Assembly: GCF_910596095.1 (NCBI RefSeq)
Contig: NC_056550.1
Coordinates: 1,488,001 to 1,552,000, forward strand
Length of the DNA stretch: 64,000 bases
Direction: 5' to 3'
DNA from: Thunnus maccoyii
Taxonomy: Eukaryota > Chordata > Actinopteri > Scombriformes > Scombridae
Shown: positions 30,182-57,164 of the stretch, piece by piece
Numbering within the stretch: the first letter of the stretch is position 1
Layout of the letters: every line of letters begins with the position of its first letter
The notes under the pieces: generated by a model
Told to the model about the DNA's origin: nothing
Seen by the model: only the letters and a program-made list of their open reading frames with translations
Database searches by the model: none
Made by a program: the position numbers and the translations under genes

Positions 30182-33100
30182 TTAGTACTCATCTCCTGGT
30201 GCCTCCATCTTGTAGCCATTCTCACTGGAGCCGTAGCCGTCAGCCGATGGCACTGACTGCTGGTCCATCATCATCCCATCCTGACTGTACTCCTCCATGT
30301 TAGGCGGTTCTCCTCCCTCATCCTCATTGCCCATGTCATCTTGAGGCCCCATGTCGTCTCGTAGGGAGCCGTGCCGCTCTTCTCTGCGCTCCCCCCTGTC
30401 TCTCTCCCCCCGTTCCCTTTTGTGCTCCCTGTCTCTGTCCCTGTCTCCCCTGCGCCTGTCTCTGTCCCTGTGGCTGCGCCTGCGGTCCCTGTCCCTCTCT
30501 CTGTCCCTGTCTCTGTCTCTACGCTCCTCCATGCCCTCACCCACTTCACCCTCGTTTTCCTCCAGCATGCGCTCCCCGCCCTCAGGGGCACCGTCTCCCT
30601 GGCCGACCTCCTCTCCATCCAGCCCCTTGCCTCTCTCCCTGTCTCTCTTGCGATCCCGGCTCCTGCTCCTTCTCTTCCTGTCTCGACTCCTCTCCCTACT
30701 TCTGCTGTCTCCTCCCGCTGCCCCCCCGCGATCCTTCTCTCGCTCTCGACGCCGGCTACTACTGCTGTTCTCCTCCCCTCCTGCGACTGGTCTTTCTCTC
30801 TCCCTTTCTCGCTCCCGGGAACGGGTACGTCGGCGGCGTTCCCGGGATCGGGATCGCCGCCGCTCTCTGTCCTTATCCCGGTCACGCTCCCGACTGCGCT
30901 CTCTCCGCTCCCCGCGCTCCCGATCACTATGAGTAGTCAGGACAAAGAGAAAAGTGTTAAATACACTACTCAATCTAACACCAAACGACAGGTCCTCACT
31001 AAAAAGTACTCACCCCCCCAGAGGGCGATCATCGTAACGTGATGCATCATCTCGGCCAGAGTGCTTGATGTTGACATCAGCTCCACCTCTCCTAGTGCCA
31101 CCCAATCCACCACCTACAGGGGAAAAAAACACCAACAACAAGCAAAACATAAGAGAAAGTTAAATATGTGTTAAGTTAAGACCCCTAAACCTGTTGACAT
31201 GTTCAGACTGATGACAGCACTGTGTCTAAAAGGGCACGAGGCTGCTGTGGTGTGGGTGTGTCGCTACAGAGAAAATACTACCCCAAAGCTCAAACTTGCA
31301 TCATTCAGCCATAATGGCTGGATCTGTACTTTCATTTGCCACATGCTTGTGGCTTTTTCTTATCTGTAGACACTTTTATTTCTATAAAAACTTATTACTG
31401 AGGGTTTTTCTTGAATGCACCTCATCTCCAATTATTAGGAATATATTATTCACGGCCTTTTCCTCAATACAATACAGTTCAGTGCACCTGTAAAGCGGCC
31501 ACCCACACTAACGTCCAATAAAAGGCAACATGAGTTTCATGTTTAATGCCTTCGTTAATCATCTGTGATGTCAAAATATCTGATGTCAGCACAGGCAAAG
31601 AAATAATAAGAGTGGATTCTGATCATAGTTCAGTTCAAAAAACAAAACACACTCCCTCCTGCATGGCTGCTGACATCACGCTGAACAACAGTAGGAGGTT
31701 GAACCAGTATCAGCCAGTGTTCTCAAGTAGTTGACTAGGCTGCATTCAAGCAACAGAAAGCTTGCACTGCTCTCCTTCCATCAACCCTCCATTCCACTAC
31801 AACAACTAAACTGTCAGGCCTTGATTAAAATGACTGATTTCTCTAATTGAAAATTGTTGGAAACATTTGGGATAATGCAAATACACAACTCACTAAAATA
31901 TATAACATAGGTCTAGTTGTTTTGAGACATTTTAATGTGAAATAGTTACATATTATAGCTTTAATAGGCACTAATGTTTCTCAGCCACAGTACTGTTGGC
32001 TATTCCTTCACTTTGGTTCAGACTAACTATCAGATGGTTTGTGATGTCATTTGAGACATTCATTGTCCCTGGAGGATGAATTTTAATTATAACTTACTGC
32101 AATCATCAGGTCAAAATTTCATTTCATTTCATTTATAAAGGACAACGTGTGCCAGTGTTAGCCAGCTGGCTAATTTTCAACTGCAGTCTTTGGAGAGATG
32201 TTTTGAAACAAAATTTAAAATGATCAAATTTACAGAACAAAGACAAGAAGAAGACAGCAGAAGATAAAAGACAGCAACAAGACAAGTATTCTCAAGACAG
32301 AACACAAGCCATACAAACATCAGTACTGCAATAACAAACACATTGAAATGTGTTTATGAGCAGATTCCTTCAACATTGATGATATTCCCATCAGTCTAAG
32401 CTGTACTTTGTGTTTAGTTGTCATTAAATGTCAGCATGTTAACACACTTAACTAAGATGGTAAAACATACTTTTTAAACATCAGCATTGAGCTGAGTAGC
32501 CTCACAGTGTCAAGTATAGCTGCTACAGAACCTGCAATGCTCCTCTCAAAAGAGTTCATGTAGAGGTCTTGGTACTGTCGCCAAGAACTCTAGTATTAGT
32601 TTGGGTTGAGTTCAGTTTATTCTTCTTTGGTATGAAATGAAAGCGTAATATAAGAAAGGCAGCTGACCTAGCCTTCGAGGATGCCATCCTTTGACAGTGC
32701 GTCCTCGTTCCACGTCCACCAGCACTCTCCTGCCGTCAATCTTCTTCCCATCTGCATGCTTGTAGGCAGCTGGAGAAGAGGAATTGGGAGAGGGAAGACA
32801 GAGGTGAGATAGGAGTAGGACTGCATCAATGTGGCCAAGGAAACAAACAGTGCATTATTATACTGACCAGGAGCAGGCGAGGCCGAGATGGCTGCTCTCT
32901 GGGTAAAAGCCGAAGGATAATGGGAGTAGACTTCCTTCCACCAGATGAGTGATCGATACGTTACACTTTTAACTGCATCATTTGAATACCCAGCTTTCAC
33001 TTCTTTCACTATCTACATTAAATTAGAGTGCTTTAAGTTGTCCGGGTTTCTTAAGGATACTTGTGAGGATTTAATTTCCAATTTTCTTGATGTGCCATCT

Positions 33101-36100
33101 CTTTAAATATATAGTTTACTACCTAATGATTCATTACTACTGTAAAGGCACGGTGGCAAGTTACTCTTCAGATTTGAATAAATACTCAATCTCTCACACA
33201 GATTTGACTGTGACAAACTAGAACTGTCAAACAAACCGCAAAGTGACATTCAATCTTCAGTGCATTTGCTAAATTTAACCAAACATGTTGGGGCAGTTGA
33301 CATTGTAGTTGTATACAATGAAAGCACTGCTGTTATCATAATCATATGTACTGTATTCATCAGATTTTCCAGTTAGCTTACAGGTGAAATGTCTTTTTTT
33401 TTTTTTTTTTTTTTTTAAATCATGTTTTATCATCCTGGCACAATTTGTATCGCTTCAGTATTCTGATTAACAATCTATTGTTTGTTTTAGACCCGACACT
33501 TTGGACACTTGATTATGACTTTTATTTTACAAATGCTTGAGAAAACATTTCTCACAGATTTGTTGATGTCCCAAAGGAAATGATGAAAAACTGAAAATGT
33601 GTGTACATTAACAGTATTATGATATGGCAATGGTCTGTTCTACTGTATTGGCTTTAATCTGCTGAAACCTTTTACCAGCTTACCATCCTCTTAATACAGC
33701 AACATGATGGACGCAACCAACAGTAAGGAGCTGTCATTAACAAGGAGTCTCCAGCATTTGGCATATTTACAACCTTGTGTACAGTCAGACTTTGTCCCAC
33801 ACCTCATCCCATTATACCACACAACAGTCTTTTGATCCATCTTGTATAATGAAAGGACTCTGCGAGATCCAGGTGGCTCCTGGCTGCTACACTGGTCTGA
33901 TGTGGTGATGATCACTGAGGGTACAACTTTTATGTCCAAGAACAGGGCCTTACCAAAACCCATCAGTTATAGCATACAGTCTTGAGGGCCTTACCAAATC
34001 CTCACATACAATAGTATACAGTCTGAGGGCCTTACCAAACTCCCTCACTCAGACTATGCAGTTGATGGTCTTACCATAATACCTCACTCTTGGGCCTTAT
34101 GAAAGTCTCTGCCCCAGTCTTAGGGCCTTACTACAATCCTTCAGCACCAAAATACAAATGCTGTCCCAGCACCTCCACCAGGGGCCTTACCAGAACCCCT
34201 CCAACGTCTGTGTTCACTAAGGATGACAACATCCCATCCAATGATAGGGCCTTACCAAACCCCCACCAGTCCTACCAAACTGACCAACTGAAAAAAAGCA
34301 CAAAAAAAACAAAACAAAAACAAAAAAAAACAAAACAAAAAAAACGGGGCTGCTTCCTTACAGGAGTTGCCTTATCACAACCCCAAACAACTAATGAGGC
34401 TTGAGACATGTCTAGTAGAAATGATCTAGGGCATCCAGTGTCTTAACTTCATTACTGACATGTCATATGATGAAACTGTAGGATCTATTTTTTTTTCTTG
34501 AATTTACTATTGTTTTGAAGGAATCTGTAAGGCCAACTTAACTAGTGTCTACATTTAGTTATGTAGTGAATAAATAATGTATGAATAGCCCATTTAGCAT
34601 AATTACCAAGAAAATTCCCCTCATTTGCCTTTTCTATTAAAGCCAGCTCAGACATATGTATTATATATATCAACTTCTCAGATGAGATTTGAACATTTTC
34701 TAGATCAAACGGGGTTGTGAATAATATCAAGCTAATTGGGCTCCCAAAGTTTGACTGAGAGAAACAGTTTGGGGAATGGAGTCACAGGAAAGTGTCATCT
34801 GAACAGCTGAGTTAATGTCCACTGCCCAGCTTCCATTATTTACATCTTTCATTGCCTTTTTAATTGGCACTAATATTTAGCAGAACACTTGAGCCTAGCA
34901 GACACGTTGAGGTGATAATGATGATAGAATTTGATTGATGTCAACTTTGCCAGTTGACAGTGAATGCCACCCATCCATCTACACACACATTTAGAGAACA
35001 GTCATGAACCTACATGTTTCTAAATTTGCAGACAAAAATGAAACTGTACTAAAACTAAAAAAAGTTAGTATAATTTTTACTCTTATTGAAAATATAATCG
35101 TTCACTTCTTTAAACAAGCACCTTTCCCTGCGGACCTACATTTACACATTACTGCAATTTACTGCTACACACCAAGAACGACTGAAAATTGTGTCACTAT
35201 TGTTCTGAGAAGCTCCTACAAATTCAGTCAATCTGCACAGCATTAATCACAACAAACTCCATAAGAACGTGGTGGGACTGACAGCTGTGTAATGTAGCTT
35301 TTTGATTTCTCTTACTTGCTCACTGACTTCCAGTACCTCCATACAGCTATGTCATTGCTATGTATGAGCCCTGAGCAACCTGAGGTGGCTTTAACATAAA
35401 GGGCAGAATCATTGGGCAATATTTAATACGCTAGTGGTCAGGGGTGCGTTCAATGGTCAAAGCCTAAGATCCAAGTAATAGCAGTTGCACTGAAAGCTCT
35501 TCAGGGCTTGCAAAAGAAAGATGCTTTTCCCATTGAACGTAGCTCCTCTTCCCTATGTAGGAGATGGAGGGTGGAAAGAAATCTTACCCATCATACAAAC
35601 CCATTATACCAACCATATACTGAGCTGTGGTAGTAGGGTGTAGATGAATCATAACCATCATCATCTGCCAGCCAGCTCTGGCCAATAGCCATCACAGATT
35701 GGCGGCTGCAGTGGCAATGAGAACAACACACAGTTAATATACTGTTTAGCCCCACATCCCCCCTCAGTTCACCCCCTGTTGTGACTACATCATAGCTGTG
35801 ATTCAGCAACTCTGGTCTTGAAGAGCTGATAGCACTAACGGCCAAAATACACCAGGCACGGACGTGGTGCGACACGTCTACCACAGCATGGCCACATCAG
35901 TGCACCTCCATTACAATCAAATGAAGCTGCTAGATCCATCATAGAAGCCGCACAGGTATCACACTCCTTATCTCTAGTTTTAAAACAAGGCTGGTCTAGT
36001 TTTTTTTTTGCACAGCTACGCGGCCCTCCAACAGGTAAAAATTACATGAAAACTGTAAAAACGAGTACTATCTGTTTAAAAATGATTAAAATAAATACCT

Positions 36101-39100
36101 CATCGTACCAGAGGCAATGTGACGAAGCAGTGCAACCTTGTGGATTTTTTTTATATTGCACGTTAAAATAAATCAAATCAATGTGTATCCATAATCCTGT
36201 AGTTTAAATGATCTGGTTAATAAATTCAGTACCAGTTAATATAACCTGGTACTGAATTTGGTGAACTAACTTCAGTTGGCTATGCTAATTGAAGTTAGCA
36301 TAGCCCCGAGGCTTCCCCGTCCTCTTGTTGTAGACTATGTAGATCTGGAAGAAACAGGCATGGAGATGTTGGTTGGCTTTGGAATGCATCATAAGACAAG
36401 AATACCCAAACACGCCGCATCAGATGTGTGTATGAATATATCAGTGACACGCAATCCAAAACCACAAACTTCAACCAAAAACAACGCTTCAAAACTCTGC
36501 ATAACTAACTACATTATCTGCTGATCATCATCGTTCCTTCTATTTATCTGTCCATGAATGAACATAACACAGGTAATCTGGAACATACTTTGTCTTTTGC
36601 AACACTCCATCAACTTGTTTACATAACATTAATAGGCAATATGAATTTGATAACTCACAACTAAAAGTACATATGAAAATAAATTTATAGAACACATGTA
36701 GACAGGTCTTATTTTTGTAATAGTTTAAGTGGCAAATGCTTTAACTTTCCAAAGTACCCTACTTGAAATCTACTCAGAAAACACGGTTGGCACGCAACCA
36801 CATGCTACAAGACGCAGTTGGTGTATCAGGTAAAAAAAAAAAAAACCTGCTCCGCCCCGCCTACGTGCTGCGTTGCGTCCGTGCCTGGTGTATTTCAACT
36901 GTTATATCCCAGAATGATGTCATTGTGTTAGATGGCACCATTCACTTGTCTAATTAGACAACACTGCATTTTTCACTGTGGCATCACCACCAGATTAAAA
37001 TCTGTCACTAGTGTGGTGAAGTTGAACTAATCTCACCATGACCAGGGTTGAAGACCACCAATAAAAACTTTGTCAAACAAACAAGCTCAATACCTAGTCA
37101 TACAAAAGATGGGTTTCCATACAGTCCTTGACACATTTCTGGTAAAAAAAAAAAAAAAAAATCCCATTCAATGCTTGGTGACCAGTCTGACCTTGTGCTT
37201 ACCATTACAGTCCAACCAGGAGAGCTGCTCTTCCACAGAGCTACAACGCCTAACAGTTAAGACAATGTGCCCTTGACAGGCAAAGATGTTGAGGTTCACA
37301 AATGAAAGACACTTCTACCTCTTGGTCCTCCCACTTTTCCCATGATGCCCCACTGAATGAAGCAGTTCCCATCCTCAACAAAACTATTAGTCAACTGATA
37401 ACACGCAACAAACACAGACACACACATCACACAACCACCAGACTCCAATTTCAACATGCAAATTGTAAAACATATGTCTATAAGAAGTTCTGATTCCTTT
37501 GATGCCATAAACATCAATTTGCTTTACTAGTAGTTGTCACCTTCCCAAGGTGTTAAAGAAAGCTGCCTCCCCATTACCATAACAAAAATAGCCATGATAG
37601 AATAAAGGGAAGGGGGTCCGACTGAAGAACCACCCTGCATGTCAGAGGTCAGTCTTTACGAACATGTAATATACAGAATGGTTTGAGCTCAGCACTCTTC
37701 ATTGGTACTCACAGTGCATGTCTCGTTCATGCTCATACTCAATGAATGCATAGCCCCGAGGCTTCCCCGTCCTCTTGTTGTAGACTATGTAGATCTGGAA
37801 GAAACAGGCATGGAGATGTTGGTTGGCTTTGGAATGCATCATAAGACAAGAATACCCAAACACGCCACGTCAGATGTGTGTATGAATATATCAGTGACAC
37901 GCAATCCAGAGCCACAAACTTCAACCAAAAACAACCACAGTTGAATCAATGCCTTTCTAACAGTGTCAACAAATATAGAATATTATATAGGTCTCCTAAA
38001 TGTACCATTTATTGCAGATCAGGTAGTAGTTCCATGTTTCCAGTGACTGAGCATATTCCTTTCATTATTTTTTGTTTTCATTTTATATATCCCTCGGTAT
38101 TTGCATTGTTTATTAGGGTGCAATTAGCTGAGTTTTGTCTACAACATATACATACAGTACATGTAACTTCAATTACAACTATTTAGGATTTACATTACAC
38201 TGACATAGCATAACAAAATTCTATTTGTAAAAGTTTTAACTAAGACCTGTCACATTCAGCTTTTCCTGCTTTCTTAGCACACAGCACCCACTACAGTGCC
38301 AGAGAGCAGTGGCAACTCCTGCACATACAAAAGTGCAGCTCATGCCAGTATGCATGTTAATTGTCGCAGCCAGTTGCACAGAAGATTGCACACAGACTAT
38401 GCTGGGAGCTTGACTGTGTAGCTCTTAACGTTTCATATCGTCTGCTGCTCAGGTGTCATTCAGGTTGCAGGTTAAGTTTTGAACATTTGAAAATTGTAGT
38501 GTATGGAGGAAAATTTCCACCCCTAGGCTTTTTTGAGAATATACAATCACAGTGAATTTAATATCAGTGTAGTTAGTAAACTTATTGCAAACATGTGAAC
38601 AGGTCTAGACAAGTGAGCAACAGCAGCTGAGCATACCCGTTTGATGGGGCCATAGACCTCAAACTCACGGCGAAGCTTGGACTCTGTCGTATCATAGTTC
38701 TACAACAAAAAGACAAAAATACCATTAGACATGAGCAGTGATGACAAAAGAATTACAACTGCTGAATTCACAGACCTGCTGTAAGTATACTTGAAAAAAA
38801 AATGGATGTGATTTTAATGTACTCACCACTCGTGCAACAAACAATGTCTTGAAGGCATCACCTTGCGCATTGGGGTCATTATGGGGATCCCCTGATATAA
38901 CGCAAATAGGAAAGCAGGATTAGTTCAAACCATGAAATCATATACAGTGAAAAGAGCTTGTACTGTATGTCAGTGTGAAAACTTACAAAGCTTGAGTTCT
39001 GTCTCCACCACTGCTTGCCTCCTCTCAATCTTCTCTCGTCTCTGCAAAAGCAAAAGACTCAGTAAATGGTAAATCTGCAACAATCACTCAGGGAAGGCTC

Positions 39101-50700: not shown

Positions 50701-53700
50701 CTCTTCCATTTTGAAGAGCAAAGCAGTCACTGAGAGGAAGAACGTTAGACATCGTTATTTCAGGGAAAGAACATGCATCTATAGGTTTATACATGAACTG
50801 ATGAACATAACATACATGACATGTATTCAAATACACAGAATATTCAACATATTCCAGAAGTCTATTTTAACATAAGTTGACAACAAGCACTGTTGGCGAC
50901 ATTTCCTCCTTCAGTTGTCAGTTGAGAACACTGCCTTTGAATGCAGATGGACAGACTGAACATGCTGAGATCTACTGATGCAGGTCTGAACTGTAGTGCA
51001 GTTTGTTGTAGACCGACTTCCCTTTTAAGCTGAAACAATGGCAGAGTGTTGTTAAGATTACAACTCCAAACCAGAGTTATATATGGAACTATAGTTCTAT
51101 GAATTATAGGTGACCGCCAGAGATGATATGTATGTAATAGCTGGATTTCCACTGTCTGCTGCTATACAACTCTCCACACTGCCCACACTTTATTTCAGTT
51201 TGAAATGTCTTGATAGGGGGGTGTGGCCTAAACAAAGTGAACATGACGTTTCCTTCTACTACTTTGCAATGAACACTATAAACCAGGACTAGAATCAATT
51301 GATAGTATAATAATGATGATAATAATAATAAGACTATACATATAATTTACTAACTCAAAATGTCTCATTTGATAGAAGACAAGATGCAGCAACAGTCGTG
51401 TGGGGATACAGTTCAAAGTGCATAGCAGTCTGAAATGTCTGCAGCGTGTTCCCACAGAACAATAAAATAACTTTTACAAAGATGAAAGTGAACTAAATGT
51501 TGACTCTGATGGATTTCCTGTCACAAGCAAAGTAAAAATCTTATGTTTGAAGTTTCTAAAAGCTGACCTTTATAATAAAGAAACTAGTGTTATTCTGTGA
51601 AATAAGGTTTTTCACTTTGTAGTGAACTCCTTTGTGTGGCTCTTTCTCCTAAAAACATGGCAGACTTGACATCTATGGAGGGAACTCACATGCTAAGACT
51701 CCTCCAGTTGTGCAGTCCACCCCGGTCTGCAGACTCCAAGGGAGGGCAGGAGCTGCCGGAGGTGGGGGAGGAGGAGGAGGAGGCTTACTAGCGGACGAGG
51801 AGGACACCGAGGAGGAGGATGGGTCTGACGAAGACAGAGGCAGAGAAAGGGAAGTGAGACCGCACCCTGCCGAAGAGGACGAGCAAGGAGGTGAGGCCAG
51901 AGATTTGGGTGCGTCATCTGGAGGAGGGGGCTTGGCGGTGGATGTAGACAAGGCATTGCTGAGGCCAGCTCCCTGGGAGGTAGACAGGCTGGATGGGCTG
52001 GACGGTGGGAGCGTGGGGCTGGTCTGAGTTGGACAGTCCTCAGCTAGGAAAGAAGGCTCTGGAGTCTTACAGCTGCTGTCCACCGTCTGAGAGTCTGGTG
52101 AGGACTCCCTGGTGTCCCGCAGAGGAGCCATAGAGGGTGGAGGTGAGTGGGGTGGCGAGGAGGAGGGTGGGAGAACACTGGTGAAGGAGGATGAGGAAGA
52201 GGAAGAAGAGGAGGAAGAACAGGGAGCGGGGCCAGCTTGGCCAGAGTGTGGACTGATTGACTTGGTCCCATCGCCAACAGCTGACTGAATGTCTAAGGAG
52301 GCTCCAGCCCAGCCATCGGATGTGGCTTTTGTTTGGCTGCTGTCTCCGGCGGTCAAGCCTGTCGCTCCGCCTTTCTCCCTGGTCTTCTTGGCCAGGCGAC
52401 GGCGGCGCTTCGTTGCCAGAGATGATGATGGGGAGGAGGCAGAAGAGGAGGTGGATGTGATAGAGCTGGGCTTAGTCTTCTTCGATTTCAGTCCCGTAGG
52501 ACTGGTTAAGGAGGATGGAGGTGCGGCCAGGCTGCTCCGCTTGCCCATACCGGCCAGATCTTTACCGCGGCTGCCCAGTGACAGCGGTTCTGAGCAAGGT
52601 TTGAGGAATGGAGACCTGCTCTCATTGTCTCGGCAGAAGACTACTGCGATTGAGCCACCCACCACAGAGCCCCCGCCACCCCCTCCTGTACCTCCTGGCC
52701 CCAGGAGATCCATGCCCAGCTTTCCAGAGCCGACCGAAGCCCCCGTGGTGCTGCTCACACCGTCACGCACCAGCACAGACACTTTGGATTGAAGCTTGCC
52801 TTTCCGACTGCCGCTGCTCTCTTTCTTGGATTTTCCAGAGCGACCCAAATCCTTTCTACTACTTTGTCTCTCTTTGTCCTTTCCCATCTTCCTGGCTCGC
52901 TTCACTGAGGGGAGACCTGATAAGACAGGGGCGGGGCCTGAAGTGACCGACAACGAGGAAAGGCATTTGCTTTTGGTTCTATTTGAAGAGGAGGAAGAGG
53001 ATTCCGATTGGCCTATTTTCTTTAATGTGCGAGATTTCTTTTTCGGGTGATGTCGTCCAGTCTTGGGGGCTGTTTTAGTTTTGGGGCTGGGGGCAGGTGG
53101 TTCTGGAGGCAGGGCAGCAGGAGGTGTATCCTCCAAAGATGGGTAGTCAGAGTCCAAAGCTTCGCCATCCAAGGACAACACATCTATCTCCAGTTTGTCT
53201 GAATAGCGGTCTGACTCATAGCTGTGATATCTCGGTGGTGACAGTGACTGGGATCGGCTGTGACAACTTGCCTGATCCTCCTCCTCTCCAGCCGAGCGCC
53301 ATTTTCTCTTCTTCTTCCTCTTGTGGGGCTTGTCTGAGTCCTGTGTGGGCCGACAAGGAGAGGCCGGGGCCAGTCTTGGAGAGCCGGGTACGGTGGTGGT
53401 GGTGGTTGTCGTGGTGACGGTGATGGTTCGCTTGATGGCAAAGAGGTCAGAACCATTGAGGTCTTGAATAGATGGCGGGACCACAGGACGACCGTCCCGG
53501 CGCCGTTCCCTCTCGCGCTGCCTGTCTCTTTCGCCTTCCCTCTTTTCCCTGCTTCTTTTGGACCCCTTTGAAATGTCCCGCTCTCTGCTGCTTGAATGTT
53601 GTCTTCCCTTCCTTTCCCTCTCCTCCCTTCTAGAGCTAGAATCTCTAGAGTCTCTTTCGTCTCTTCTGCGGCTACTGGTGCGGTTTTGGTCTCTCTCTCT

Positions 53701-55200
53701 ATCCCTGTCTCGCTCTCTTCCTCTGTCTCTATCCCTCTCTCTGTCGTTGTCCCTCTCTCCAGTTCTGTCCCTCGCTCTGTCTTTATCTCTTTCCCTCTCT
53801 CTGTGTCGTTCTTCGGATAGGCTTGAAAAGGAGCGCCTGGTGTGGCCCCCTCTCCCTGAAGAGTTGTGGGATCCTGAGGCCTCTGGGCTGCTGTGCCGTC
53901 TTTTCTTCCTCTTCCGGCTACTGCTCCTGCTGCTCCTCCGACTTTTCATCTCCTTACCGCTCTTGTGCCCTTGCTCCCTTTCTTTGCTCCTCTCTCGACC
54001 TCCCTCTTTGTCCTTCCTTCTCTTTTTTCTTCTCTCCTCCTTCTCCCCGGCCTTCCTGTCCTTGCTTTTCTGTCTGTCCTGCTCCTTGGAACTCTTGGTG
54101 GACTTACGGTTCTTGCTCGCTTGCTCGACAGGAGGCGCGAGAGGGGAGGAGGGTGGAGAAGCTTCGGGATGGGAGGGAGGGGGTGGTGGTGGTTGAGGAG
54201 AGAGGGGCGAAGAAGCGGGAAAGGAGAGATATCTTTCCTTCCGCCTGCTGACCAGCTTCGTTCTCAGATCCTCTACTCCTACCATAGGCTCATCCTCAGG
54301 CTCCCTATCCACATCCCAGTTGCCCTCTGCACACACGGACACGAAGCCGTCCCCGTCCAGCACTCGGAGGATGCGCTCTGGCTTTGAACCAAAGAAGGAG
54401 ACGTTGGTTGAATTCAAGGGGAGATTTCCACCAGCTGCTCTCTTGTTGCTTCCATCTCTGTCAGCAGCCCCGACTATCTCCCCCTCCTCTATCTCAGAGT
54501 GGTCAGAGTCTGCGCTCTCCCTCTGCTCTCCAGCTTTGGTGATGCTACAGTCCACTCTCCTCCTCAGAGGGAGTTTGGTGGCCAGAGAGGGGCTTGGCAG
54601 ATCAGTGAAGGTATCAGTGGAATCCGGAGGCTCTTCCTCTTTCTCATCATCATTTTCTCTCTCAGCGTTTTTTGTCTCTCCCCTCATTTTGCCGCTCCCG
54701 TCATCGGTGTCTGATGCTGGGGAACCAGTGGGGTCAAAGGGGTCATATTTTTCCCCCTCTCCCTCCTCCCCCTCCCCCTCCTCTCCCTCCACCCTTCCCT
54801 CCTTGTCTCCCTCAGTTGGATGGAAGGGATCATACATTTCCTTCTTCCTGCCCTCTTCTTCACAATCAACACCTTGATGCACTGAGGTGTGAGGGAAGGA
54901 ATCTGAGGTGGTGTTGGGTATAGGTGTAGAGAGAGATGACGTTGCTGGAGAGGCAGAAGTGGAGGACACCCTGGCCACCTCCGTCCCCCGAGTCTGACCT
55001 TTTACATGGTTCTGATAAACTGACGAGTTGGCGCAGACGGAGGAGGATGTAGACAACGGTGAAGATGGATCAGATGAAGGAGATGACGGAGACAAGGAAG
55101 GTGAGCGGGAAGGAGGGCTCCTGGCAATCTCTCTCACTCCAGCAGGGGAAGAGGAGGCAGCAGGTCTCCTTTTGAAGCCTGATGCTGGAGTCAAGTCCAT
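44741..55200 (-). CDS. scaf1: SCAF1, SR-related CTD-associated factor (N-terminus uncertain)
   Basis: SCAF1 links the RNA polymerase II CTD to pre-mRNA processing. Coding exons in transcript order: 55200-51690, 50729-50647, 49500-49192, 45952-45824 and 44899-44741 (stop TGA). They give 1396 residues from the first Met. Matches to human SCAF1 include YDPFHPTE (123-130), KYDPFDPTG (151-159), SEIEEGEIV, the [13 protein letters not shown] block, PPSIQDL then [71 protein letters not shown], and the C-terminal CTD-binding region ([20 protein letters not shown], then [20 protein letters not shown]). A long RS/RD/RE-rich stretch lies between. An in-frame stop sits shortly upstream of Met 55200, so any further N-terminal residues must come from another exon; the human protein has more N-terminal sequence that I could not find. 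Confidence 0.93.
45040..45115. repeat. Short interspersed repeat tail
   Basis: CAATCAATCAATCTTTATTT followed by TATAGCGCCATATCACAACA and AAGGCACTTTTCACATAGAG is a very common fish repeat motif. It is too short to classify. It lies in the last scaf1 intron. Confidence 0.5.
45307..45798. mobile_element. hAT-like MITE beside a scaf1 splice donor
   Basis: The ends are inverted TAGGGCTGTGCAATATGAC and GTCATATTGCACAGGCCTA. ACTGGATAT flanks both sides (45298-45306 and 45799-45807) and contains an 8-bp target duplication. The element is non-coding. It begins 25 bp from the donor of the scaf1 exon ending at 45824. Confidence 0.82.
46801..47945. mobile_element. Element with ~95-bp inverted repeats enclosing an L1 fragment
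   Basis: The left arm (46801-46888) and right arm (47845-47945) match as inverted copies, with TTCTGCACATGCAC, GTGGGTCC, GACAGCTAGGTA and ACTTGGACAA blocks. An inner partial copy of the arm lies at 47671-47700 (AAGATGGCGGACCCACT). The interior holds LINE sequence. No transposase was recognised. It lies in a scaf1 intron. Confidence 0.7.
47466..47690 (+). mobile_element. L1-type LINE ORF2 C-terminal fragment
   Basis: The frame reading [19 protein letters not shown] then VCNYKI resembles the end of the reverse transcriptase region of fish L1 elements (pattern W..P.Y.F...GGL.FLL.CN). It is truncated and frameshifted. AATAAATAAAG follows at about 47770. Confidence 0.55.
47957..48957. mobile_element. 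Non-autonomous DNA transposon with long imperfect TIRs
   Basis: The left end CACTAGGAGTGCTTTTCATT and the complement of the right end CCTAGGGTGCTTTTCATTA match. Similarity continues inward for about 50 bp through TGCTTCCTCTTCCTC-like sequence. The interior of about 0.9 kb has no convincing protein. It abuts the previous element. Confidence 0.65.
49655..49860 (+). mobile_element. MITE family A, copy 3
   Basis: The ends are inverted: TCCTCTGTGCTGTA at about 49670 and CTACAGCACAGAGGA at about 49840. The interior AAGTCAAGAGGTTGTGATAT and TTTTGGACAACAA blocks match the copies at 10610-10895 and 58125-58445. It lies in a scaf1 intron. Confidence 0.75.
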
Positions 55201-57164
55201 GGGCCAGGAGGACTGGTCATGCAGAGGTCAGACAGTGGAACCTGGAGGTTGGAAGTAAAGGGCGAGGCCACACCGAAAGAATGGAATCCAGCAATCAACC
55301 TAGTGGAAAAGGACAGGAGACATGCCATCTTTATCTTATAATAAAAATATATCTGAAAATGTTGAGACCACTGAGGCAAAAGAGGCCGGTGGCATCATTT
55401 GTGGAAATTTTAAGAGTGTGAGAATCATTTTGTGGGGATAGAAGTTGGTTAATTTGAAAGATGTACTGCTCTTTGTCATAGAGCACCTGACTACATTATC
55501 AGATAAGTTTCCCACATTCAACACAGCATCTTATTGATGTCCATGCCAGACCCCTGTCTGTCTGTCTGTCAGAGTGATTTCCCCCCCCCCCCCAAACTTC
55601 ACTCTAGCATCCTTCCTCTTCATCCTACTCCCTGTTAGTCTGAAGGAGGAAATAAAGGGCAGAATAGAGCTTGACTGAAGACTTCAAGTGCTTTTTTAGA
55701 TAACGACTGAAGTTGTGTTTGTACATCTTAAGAGTCTAAACGGATACAACAGCATGACCGATGTTATCAACAGACATGACATTTTGATATCACTGTATTG
55801 ATCAGCCGATGGGTAAAAAGAAATGTCGGCAGAGAAATGCAAAAGATATGTGTGAGGTGTGAGGCTGCCCCCTTAAGTTAGTGAGTTGATGCATCAGAGC
55901 TGACTCGCATTTTGTCAGTCGAATCATTCCCTTTTTTTTTTTTTAGCCACGTCATACAAAGAGTAACACAGGGTAACAGCAGGACAGGCTGTCAACTTTT
56001 ACAGATTCTTGTCTTTAAATGAGCTAAATACATAACCTGGATGGACTGAAATGCTGACTCTGAGTGGACTGATCCTGAGTTGGGGGAAGCCTGAGTGAGC
56101 TCATTTAGATATTAAGTGAACATAGTAAAATGTCCCACTCAGGACAAATCTTGGTCATAGTTTACTAACAAAAACCAATCAAAAATCCAGTATCAGCAAG
56201 GCTATGGTCCAGAAATGCACTTAGTATTAGCTTTACCAAGTAAACTGAGAGTCATTTACAAGAAAGAGGACAAACAATACAAATTCAATAACTACCAGAA
56301 CCAGAGAATGTGTGAGTCAGAGCCCATTTCTGGATGAAGAGAAAAGGGTGGAGACTGTATGACTGAGCATTAACAATTACTCAAGGGCAAAAGTTTGAGT
56401 TATCACTGTTGCATTCTCATCAAGGTTCTCTGGCTTTGCTGATTCATAGCTGACAGAGTGTGTGGGGTGAGGGATAGATCAGTCTGTCAATGAGCCCAGC
56501 AGCATGACACAGACAAGTATCTGTCAACCTCCCAGTCCATCAGTGAGCAGGAGCAGACTGCAGCAGGTCAGTCTTTAACTAGCTTAGTAGCGAATGTCAA
56601 CTGACACGAGCAAGACATGCTTTCTCCTAGCTGCTCATTACTGCTTGCAGAGAGTCCAGTCTGGTCGAATACATTAACTGCGTTATTGAGTATTAGTGTA
56701 ACGTTATGTATCGTTAGGTATCTACAACCCTTTGTTTTTCTCTGTTGTTATTTTGCTCGTCTTGCATTTTCTTTTGTTGAACTTCACGTTTTTTTTCCTG
56801 TTTTCTGTATAAAGTCATTATTTGCCTGTATGATTTCTAACTCTTGTTGATGGAAAAGAAAAAAACAACATTAAGCGTTATGTTAACATGTTAAACACTG
56901 CACTCACTCTTAGCCACTGTTAGCCTTCATTGTATAACTTAGCTTTAAGACTAACGCCACTGGCAGCCCATCTGAACATATTTGTTGATTACATTGCTTG
57001 TAATCCTGTTTTGTCATTGCTCATAAAGTACACAGGACTTTTAAGAGACATTCACTCTGTAAGGATGTGTCGGCAGCAGGTATTCTGCTAGCTAGCGAGC
57101 TAATTTAGCTCACTGTAGCTCGCTGGCTAAATGCAGCAGGAGGAGCTGTGTGCTAATGAGTTAC

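What the first reader, a model, noticed from the sequence alone, without database searches (positions are those of the whole stretch)
33676..34345. U1-titrating poison exon inside the U1-70K gene: long U-tract plus repeated 5' splice sites
Seen: on the snrnp70 strand a T-rich tract of about 55 nt ends in CAG, then at least seven G|GTAAG donors and one A|GTAAG follow over about 0.6 kb, most within TTTGGTAAGGCCC. The shortest exon (32 nt) shifts the frame and yields TAG as the last codon of exon 7. Known, recalled: U1-70K and U1C levels are cross-regulated through alternative splicing of U1-70K in mammals. Inferred: the donor array acts as a U1 snRNP sensor. High U1 activity would engage the donors, favour exon inclusion and trigger NMD; low activity would skip it. 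The multiplication of donors by a 41-bp tandem repeat may be a lineage-specific tuning device.
Basis: partly seen in the sequence, partly recalled or inferred. Interest (0 to 1): 0.85.

Follow-up and report, generated by a model that had tools for sequence, protein, structure and literature searches.

The report
Second U1-site cluster in U1-70K intron
In a vertebrate genome, probably a fish, the gene for a core splicing protein carries an extra cluster of splice-donor-like sites inside an intron already known in other vertebrates to switch the gene off when splicing machinery is plentiful; the cluster may reinforce that switch or may be leftover repeat DNA.

Summary
The letters are as described: on the minus strand a 54-nt T-rich tract ends in CAG (34290-34288), and seven GGTAAG plus one AGTAAG follow within 0.6 kb. 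The regulatory idea is already published: U1-70K 'exon 7a' with clustered regulatory 5' splice sites, dependent on U1C, in human, mouse and zebrafish (PMC3798272). The array is a second cluster. It is not one clean 41-bp tandem: eight copies of a roughly 15-nt motif, TTTG|GTAAGGCCCT, at spacings of 26-65 nt, core better kept than most flanks. Its spacing from exon 7a and from the next exon resembles that of a block kept in the human minigene; homology could not be tested. Best reading: an auxiliary U1 decoy or retention element. Strong rival: a decayed minisatellite.

The parts
37713..37794 (-). snrnp70 exon equivalent to human exon 7 ([27 protein letters not shown] + 1 nt); donor GTGAGT at 37712
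   Evidence: tblastn of human U1-70K, translation, PDB U1-70K chains E 7.5e-36 for the joined two exons
32668..32769 (-). snrnp70 exon equivalent to human exon 8 ([10 protein letters not shown]...)
35588..35705 (-). homologue of the published U1C-dependent exon 7a, acceptor TGCCACTGCAG|CCG; reading T+CC GCC AAT CTG TGA = S A N L stop
   Evidence: human antisense-oligo sequences align at 35620-35581 with score 63 against at most 36 in 200 shuffles; stop codon; acceptor position inferred (ninth of 331 AGs by a rough score)
35581..35610 (-). regulatory 5' splice sites of exon 7a; letters inferred from oligo coverage: A TTG|GTATAATG (+1 at 35609), B TGG|GTTTGTAT (35600), C TGG|GTAAGATT (35587)
34291..34344 (-). 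54-nt T-rich tract upstream of the CAG at 34290-34288
   Evidence: acceptor is second-best of 331 AG dinucleotides by a rough score from recalled frequencies
   Evidence: no transcript evidence
33940..34270 (-). array of eight copies of TTTG|GTAAGGCCCT; +1 positions 34255, 34190, 34131, 34100 (GT lost), 34074, 34035, 33994, 33953
33679..33684 (-). isolated GGTAAG (ATG|GTAAGCTGG), not a copy of the array motif
33521..33526 (-). the only AATAAA on the sense strand of the intron, about 157 nt downstream of the last GGTAAG
35836..36904 (-). stretch bounded by 42-nt inverted repeats (76% complementary), possibly an inserted DNA element, which lengthens the distance from exon to exon 7a
36298..36485 (-). 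partial copy of the upstream exon with its 3' splice site (188 nt, 97.9% identical to 37748-37935)

Best explanation
The array is a second, auxiliary U1 snRNP docking cluster in the regulated intron of snrnp70, downstream of the true switch, exon 7a. Shown here: a close match to the exon 7a donor cluster is present with an acceptor-like site and a stop, and a separate array of six GGTAAG cores (plus one AGTAAG and one decayed copy) with one shared motif lies about 1.4 kb further on. Published, not shown here: intact U1 snRNPs on exon 7a sites activate its 3' splice site, the rest of the intron then stays largely unspliced, and the product is lost by NMD. Inferred: when intact U1 is plentiful, several U1 particles also sit on the array. 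Together with the strong T-rich acceptor they form a decoy that hinders removal of the remaining intron and helps hold the non-productive transcript in the nucleus. When U1-70K or U1C is short, both clusters empty and the whole intron is removed.
For: Exon 7a found by human oligo sequences with an immediate stop. Intron at the same codon position of U1-70K as the published one. GGTAAG excess. By the rough score six array donors (7.7-9.3) exceed the real upstream exon donor (6.7). Motif core 9.3 of 11 identical on average over 28 pairs of copies, while 12-nt flanks score 2.9 and 2.1 against 2.7 and 1.9 for shuffles. Acceptor second best of 331 AGs scanned. Array lies 1418-1752 nt after the exon 7a acceptor and 1184-1518 nt before the next exon; the block 1928-2227 kept in the human minigene lies 1285-1584 nt after and 935-1234 nt before. 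Published: the remainder of intron 7 stays largely unspliced, and a further downstream cryptic site D exists; Snrnp70 non-productive RNAs show some nuclear retention in rat cells; U11-bound 65K RNA is held in the nucleus and U1-70K is said to be able to promote retention.
Against: No transcripts and no second species were available. Donor-like triples are about as common genome-wide as a reversed control (754 versus 667). Looser donor scoring gives only a moderate excess (10 against a shuffle mean of 3.8, maximum 12). The motif is not an optimal donor: T at -2 in 8 of 8, G at +6 in 7 of 8, and the shared GCCC at +6 to +9 is not explained by U1 pairing. Copies were picked by their core (one of them with its GGCCC), so core identity is partly built in. 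One copy has lost GT. The 3' copies are a partly decayed tandem (76.6% identity over 64 nt at 82-bp offset). In smooth muscle cells the non-productive Snrnp70 splicing is higher where U1-70K protein is lower, so the feedback is not the only control.
Confidence: 0.4

Rival explanations
1. Decayed minisatellite: a short tandem repeat whose unit happens to contain GGTAAG arose in this intron by slippage next to a T-rich simple repeat; it has no role, and U1 binding, if any, is incidental.
For: Hundreds of GGTAAG triples at similar spacing exist in this genome, about as many as for a reversed control; the last copies show 41-bp spacing and flank homology at 82-bp offset; a probable decayed copy lies on the far side of the T tract; one copy has lost GT.
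Against: The first copies have flanks that do not align while the core stays; spacings are irregular; position is in the one intron known for clustered regulatory 5' splice sites, about where the human minigene keeps a second block.
Confidence: 0.36
2. One reading: the array is itself the main U1 sensor, through inclusion of a 32-nt or longer cassette exon from acceptor 34287, which triggers NMD.
For: Strong acceptor, donors present, all eight proposed products read carry a stop.
Against: The published and zebrafish-tested switch is exon 7a, whose sequence is present here; in human cells the cryptic donors are not significantly used unless NMD is blocked, and the cluster acts by activating the acceptor. 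Insertions that break the frame usually give a stop, so stops are weak evidence.
Confidence: 0.13
3. U1 sites guarding an intronic poly(A) signal: the array suppresses cleavage at the AATAAA at 33526 (telescripting), so that intronic polyadenylation responds to U1 level.
For: The only sense-strand AATAAA of the intron is about 157 nt downstream of the last GGTAAG; an internal poly(A) event, or intron retention, is reported for mouse Snrnp70; a conserved U1 site affects cleavage in the U11/U12-65K gene (abstract, section titles, section 12).
Against: No evidence of cleavage here; the sign of the loop would be positive rather than homeostatic; one AATAAA in 4.9 kb is unremarkable.
Confidence: 0.07
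4. Competing RNA structures: array copies pair one at a time with a complementary stretch upstream of the T tract (about 34534-34505), as in docking-selector exons.
For: 30-nt arms 77% complementary; all eight copies give a predicted duplex with it, -11.8 to -29.1 kcal/mol.
Against: Not significant: 37 of 150 shuffles match the consensus energy and 12 of 174 match the sum over copies.
Confidence: 0.03

Closest known systems
[quoted passage not shown] 2013, PMC3798272)
   Same: Same gene, same intron, clusters of regulatory 5' splice sites downstream of an alternative 3' splice site, premature stop. The window contains its homologue at about 35588-35705.
U12-type splicing enhancer (USSE) of U11-48K and U11/U12-65K (PMC5473595, abstract and section 12 seen)
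   Same: Tandem 5' splice sites of the snRNP's own class sense that snRNP in a gene for one of its proteins and lead to unproductive or nuclear RNA.
   Different: Minor spliceosome, two particles on the element; here major-spliceosome-like sites, eight copies.
Decoy exons promoting intron retention (Parra and Conboy; recalled, papers not held)
   Same: Splice-site-rich, rarely spliced pseudo-exon inside a large retained intron.
   Different: Retention of this intron in this species is not shown, and the element has a donor array rather than one donor.
Minisatellites containing GGTAAG in the same genome
   Same: Several GGTAAG in a few hundred bases.
   Different: The roughly 100 places printed, of 754, look by eye mostly like near-identical repeated units; here spacing is irregular and most flanks are unrelated.

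Membership tests
U1-70K exon 7a switch (as a feature of this gene) | Located in the intron between the exons ending ERDMH and starting SAYKHAD of U1-70K | tested here: met
U1-70K exon 7a switch (as a feature of this gene) | Sequence match to the human regulatory 5' splice sites A-C | tested here: met
   35620-35581, 37 of 39 aligned human positions identical, one 1-nt gap; score 63 against at most 36 in 200 shuffles
U1-70K exon 7a switch (as a feature of this gene) | Alternative 3' splice site giving a premature stop | tested here: inconclusive
   acceptor-like site at 35705 gives S-A-N-L-stop; its use is not shown, and the distance to site C is 118 nt here versus about 85 computed for human
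   best match of the human cluster is at 35620, not in 33676-34345
   needs RNA
Second block of human intron 7 (positions 1928-2227) | Sequence homology | not testable with these tools
   human and zebrafish intron sequences not available; only relative position compared
41-bp tandem repeat / minisatellite | Regular head-to-tail units with similar divergence along the unit | tested here: inconclusive
   not reported by Tandem Repeats Finder; spacings 65, 59, 31, 26, 39, 41, 41; 3' copies partly homologous in flanks
Decoy exon causing intron retention | Retained intron and rare junctions to the pseudo-exon | not testable with these tools
   no RNA data

The most novel reading that the evidence does not exclude
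This species has a two-stage U1 sensor in snrnp70: the vertebrate exon 7a and, downstream, a lineage-expanded array of a 15-nt motif that combines a deliberately sub-optimal 5' splice site with a second, unknown signal (GCCC at +6 to +9). Copy number sets how many U1 particles must be free before the remaining intron is locked, unspliced, in the nucleus.
Probability: 0.15. Interest if true: 0.65.

Novelty: new variant of a known kind. Interest (0 to 1): 0.38.

Why it matters
It shows that the published U1-70K/U1C feedback element can be recognised in this genome from sequence alone, and it points to a second U1-site cluster in the same intron. If functional, that cluster would be an independent natural test of how the number and strength of 5' splice sites set the threshold of spliceosome self-regulation, and of how non-productive transcripts are kept unspliced and nuclear.

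Tried and rejected
Docking-selector pairing between the array and an upstream complementary stretch: not significant (37 of 150 shuffles; 12 of 174). Known RNA families: none at gathering threshold in the whole window. Other vertebrate copies of exon 7a in viral contigs and genome contigs: 0 matches to one exact 21-base pattern. A second snrnp70 copy in the genome: of 4 matches at E <= 0.001, two are this gene's exons and two are more distant, 46% and 40% identical. The 416-nt array stretch as a dispersed repeat: one place only in this genome. The column-permutation test (0 of 20000) is not used as evidence, because the copies were aligned on their core. Whole-genome counts of TTTGGTAAGGCCCT, of the inverted-repeat element and of exon 7a did not complete. 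Literature strings of the motif: 58 papers hold at least one of three strings; the titles of the 15 listed are not about U1-70K. PMC8211703 (abstract and section 17) treats U1-70K isoforms in animals; the section seen does not mention such an array. I saw no title or abstract start describing this array in the listings; those are capped lists and the library lacks most subscription papers. Splice-site scores use frequencies recalled from memory, not MaxEnt.

Full report
What is in the sequence. The finding lies on the minus strand in snrnp70. The intron runs from 37712 to 32770 (4943 nt) and sits between ERDMH and SAYKHAD, which is the human exon 7-8 junction as far as I recall the human exon limits; the exon 7a match below supports it. 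In the genome that holds the window (782 Mb, unnamed, no relatives held) this is the only close copy found.

The T-rich tract, the CAG, seven GGTAAG and one AGTAAG are where it says. The excess of GGTAAG is strong locally: 7 against a mean of 0.29 and a maximum of 3 in 2000 shuffles, 0 of 20000 random placements give such a cluster, and 20 stretches of 10 kb from the same genome hold at most 2 within 320 nt. With a looser donor score the excess is moderate: 10 against a mean of 3.8 and a maximum of 12. The genome as a whole holds 754 matches to a triple-GGTAAG pattern, close to the 667 of the reversed control; the roughly 100 printed look mostly like plain minisatellites. A donor cluster as such is therefore not special. 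All eight products read give stops: the 32-nt exon gives TAG at the end of the next exon, and the longer ones stop inside the array.

What is already known. Rosel-Hillgartner et al. 2013 (PMC3798272; I read the abstract and parts 1 to 6 of 7 of the main text, with passages) describe U1-70K exon 7a. [quoted passage not shown] it introduces a stop; the rest of the intron stays largely unspliced; the product is expected to be removed by NMD; the effect depends on U1C in human, mouse and zebrafish.

Where the known element really is. The paper prints two human antisense oligos against sites A-C. Their sense sequence, joined at the overlap, aligns at 35620-35581 with 37 of 39 aligned human positions identical and one 1-nt gap: score 63, against at most 36 for 200 shuffled queries and 29 for the best place on the plus strand. 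Upstream lies TGCCACTGCAG|CCG, exon start 35705, and the frame reads S-A-N-L-stop. Sites A (35609), B (35600) and C (35587) are my assignment from oligo coverage; my note named other A and B positions, and this replaces it. One mismatch with the human geometry: 118 nt from acceptor to site C here, about 85 in human as computed from one stated transcript length, and the paper gives two different lengths for that transcript.

What the array is. Eight copies share a motif of about 15 nt, TTTG|GTAAGGCCCT. Positions -4, -2, +2 to +5, +7 and +8 are the same in 8 of 8; +1, +6 and +9 in 7 of 8. The seventh GGTAAG, at 33684, lacks the motif and is not counted. Spacings are 65, 59, 31, 26, 39, 41, 41. 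Over all 28 pairs of copies the 11-nt core agrees at 9.3 positions on average, while 12-nt flanks score 2.9 and 2.1 against 2.7 and 1.9 for shuffles; d6 against d7 and d5 against d6 stand out, and 34087-34026 matches 34005-33944 at 76.6% over 64 nt. This fits either an old repeat whose core has been kept, or dispersed copies of a motif. Most copies were picked by GTAAG and one by TAAGGCCC, so mainly the agreement outside GTAAG (T at -4 and -2, G at +6, CCC at +7 to +9) is independent evidence; U1 pairing does not need it. A probable decayed ninth copy sits on the other side of the T tract (34375), which hints that the tract lies inside an older, longer array. By the rough score six array donors exceed the real upstream donor, and the acceptor at 34287 ranks second of 331 AGs.

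Likely role. In the published scheme the 3' part of the intron is left unspliced once exon 7a is joined. The array lies in that part, 1418-1752 nt after the exon 7a acceptor and 1184-1518 nt before the next exon. The human minigene, said to maintain the most highly conserved regions, kept intron 7 positions 1928-2227, which lie 1285-1584 nt after the acceptor and 935-1234 nt before exon 8. Without the inverted-repeat stretch, exon 7a would start 938 nt into the intron here, about 643 in human. The human paper also mentions a further downstream cryptic site D. Position is thus compatible with homology to a human block, but I could not obtain that sequence. I favour an auxiliary U1 docking cluster that keeps the remainder unspliced and nuclear. 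Published support for such effects: competing 5' splice sites inhibit each other (cited in PMC3798272); Snrnp70 non-productive RNAs show some nuclear retention in rat cells (PMC5062968, passages); snRNP-bound 65K RNA is held in the nucleus and U1-70K is cited as able to promote retention (PMC5473595, abstract and section 12). Against a simple loop, the same PMC5062968 reports more non-productive splicing where U1-70K protein is lower. None of this was shown for the array.

Verdict. Observation confirmed; interpretation partly supported. I cannot separate these without relatives or RNA.

Noticed in passing
36298-36485 (copy) and 37748-37935 (source), minus strand: Partial copy of the upstream snrnp70 exon with its 3' splice site and 47 nt of coding sequence lies in the intron, 97.9% identical over 188 nt; its downstream edge runs into overlapping inverted repeats, which might reflect a template switch. 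Splicing to it would read [23 protein letters not shown].
   Followed up: partly
35836-36904: 42-nt inverted repeats, 76% complementary, 985 nt apart, enclosing the exon copy: looks like an inserted DNA element that holds a piece of its host gene. No copy in 20 sampled stretches of 10 kb; the whole-genome search did not complete.
   Followed up: partly
33526: The only sense-strand AATAAA of the intron, about 157 nt after the last GGTAAG; an internal poly(A) event or retention is reported for mouse Snrnp70.
   Followed up: partly
34505-34534 against 33987-34016: Stretch upstream of the T tract complementary to the array motif (30 nt, 77%); not significant in two shuffle tests.
   Followed up: yes
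37138: An acceptor-like site, long T run then ACCAG, scores above all others in the intron by the rough score, with ATG|GTAAGCACA upstream at 37202.
   Followed up: no
51673-55227, minus strand: 1184-codon open frame rich in Ser, Pro and RD/RE repeats, no Pfam family at E <= 0.001; resembles an SR-related CTD-associated factor (recalled, not tested).
   Followed up: no
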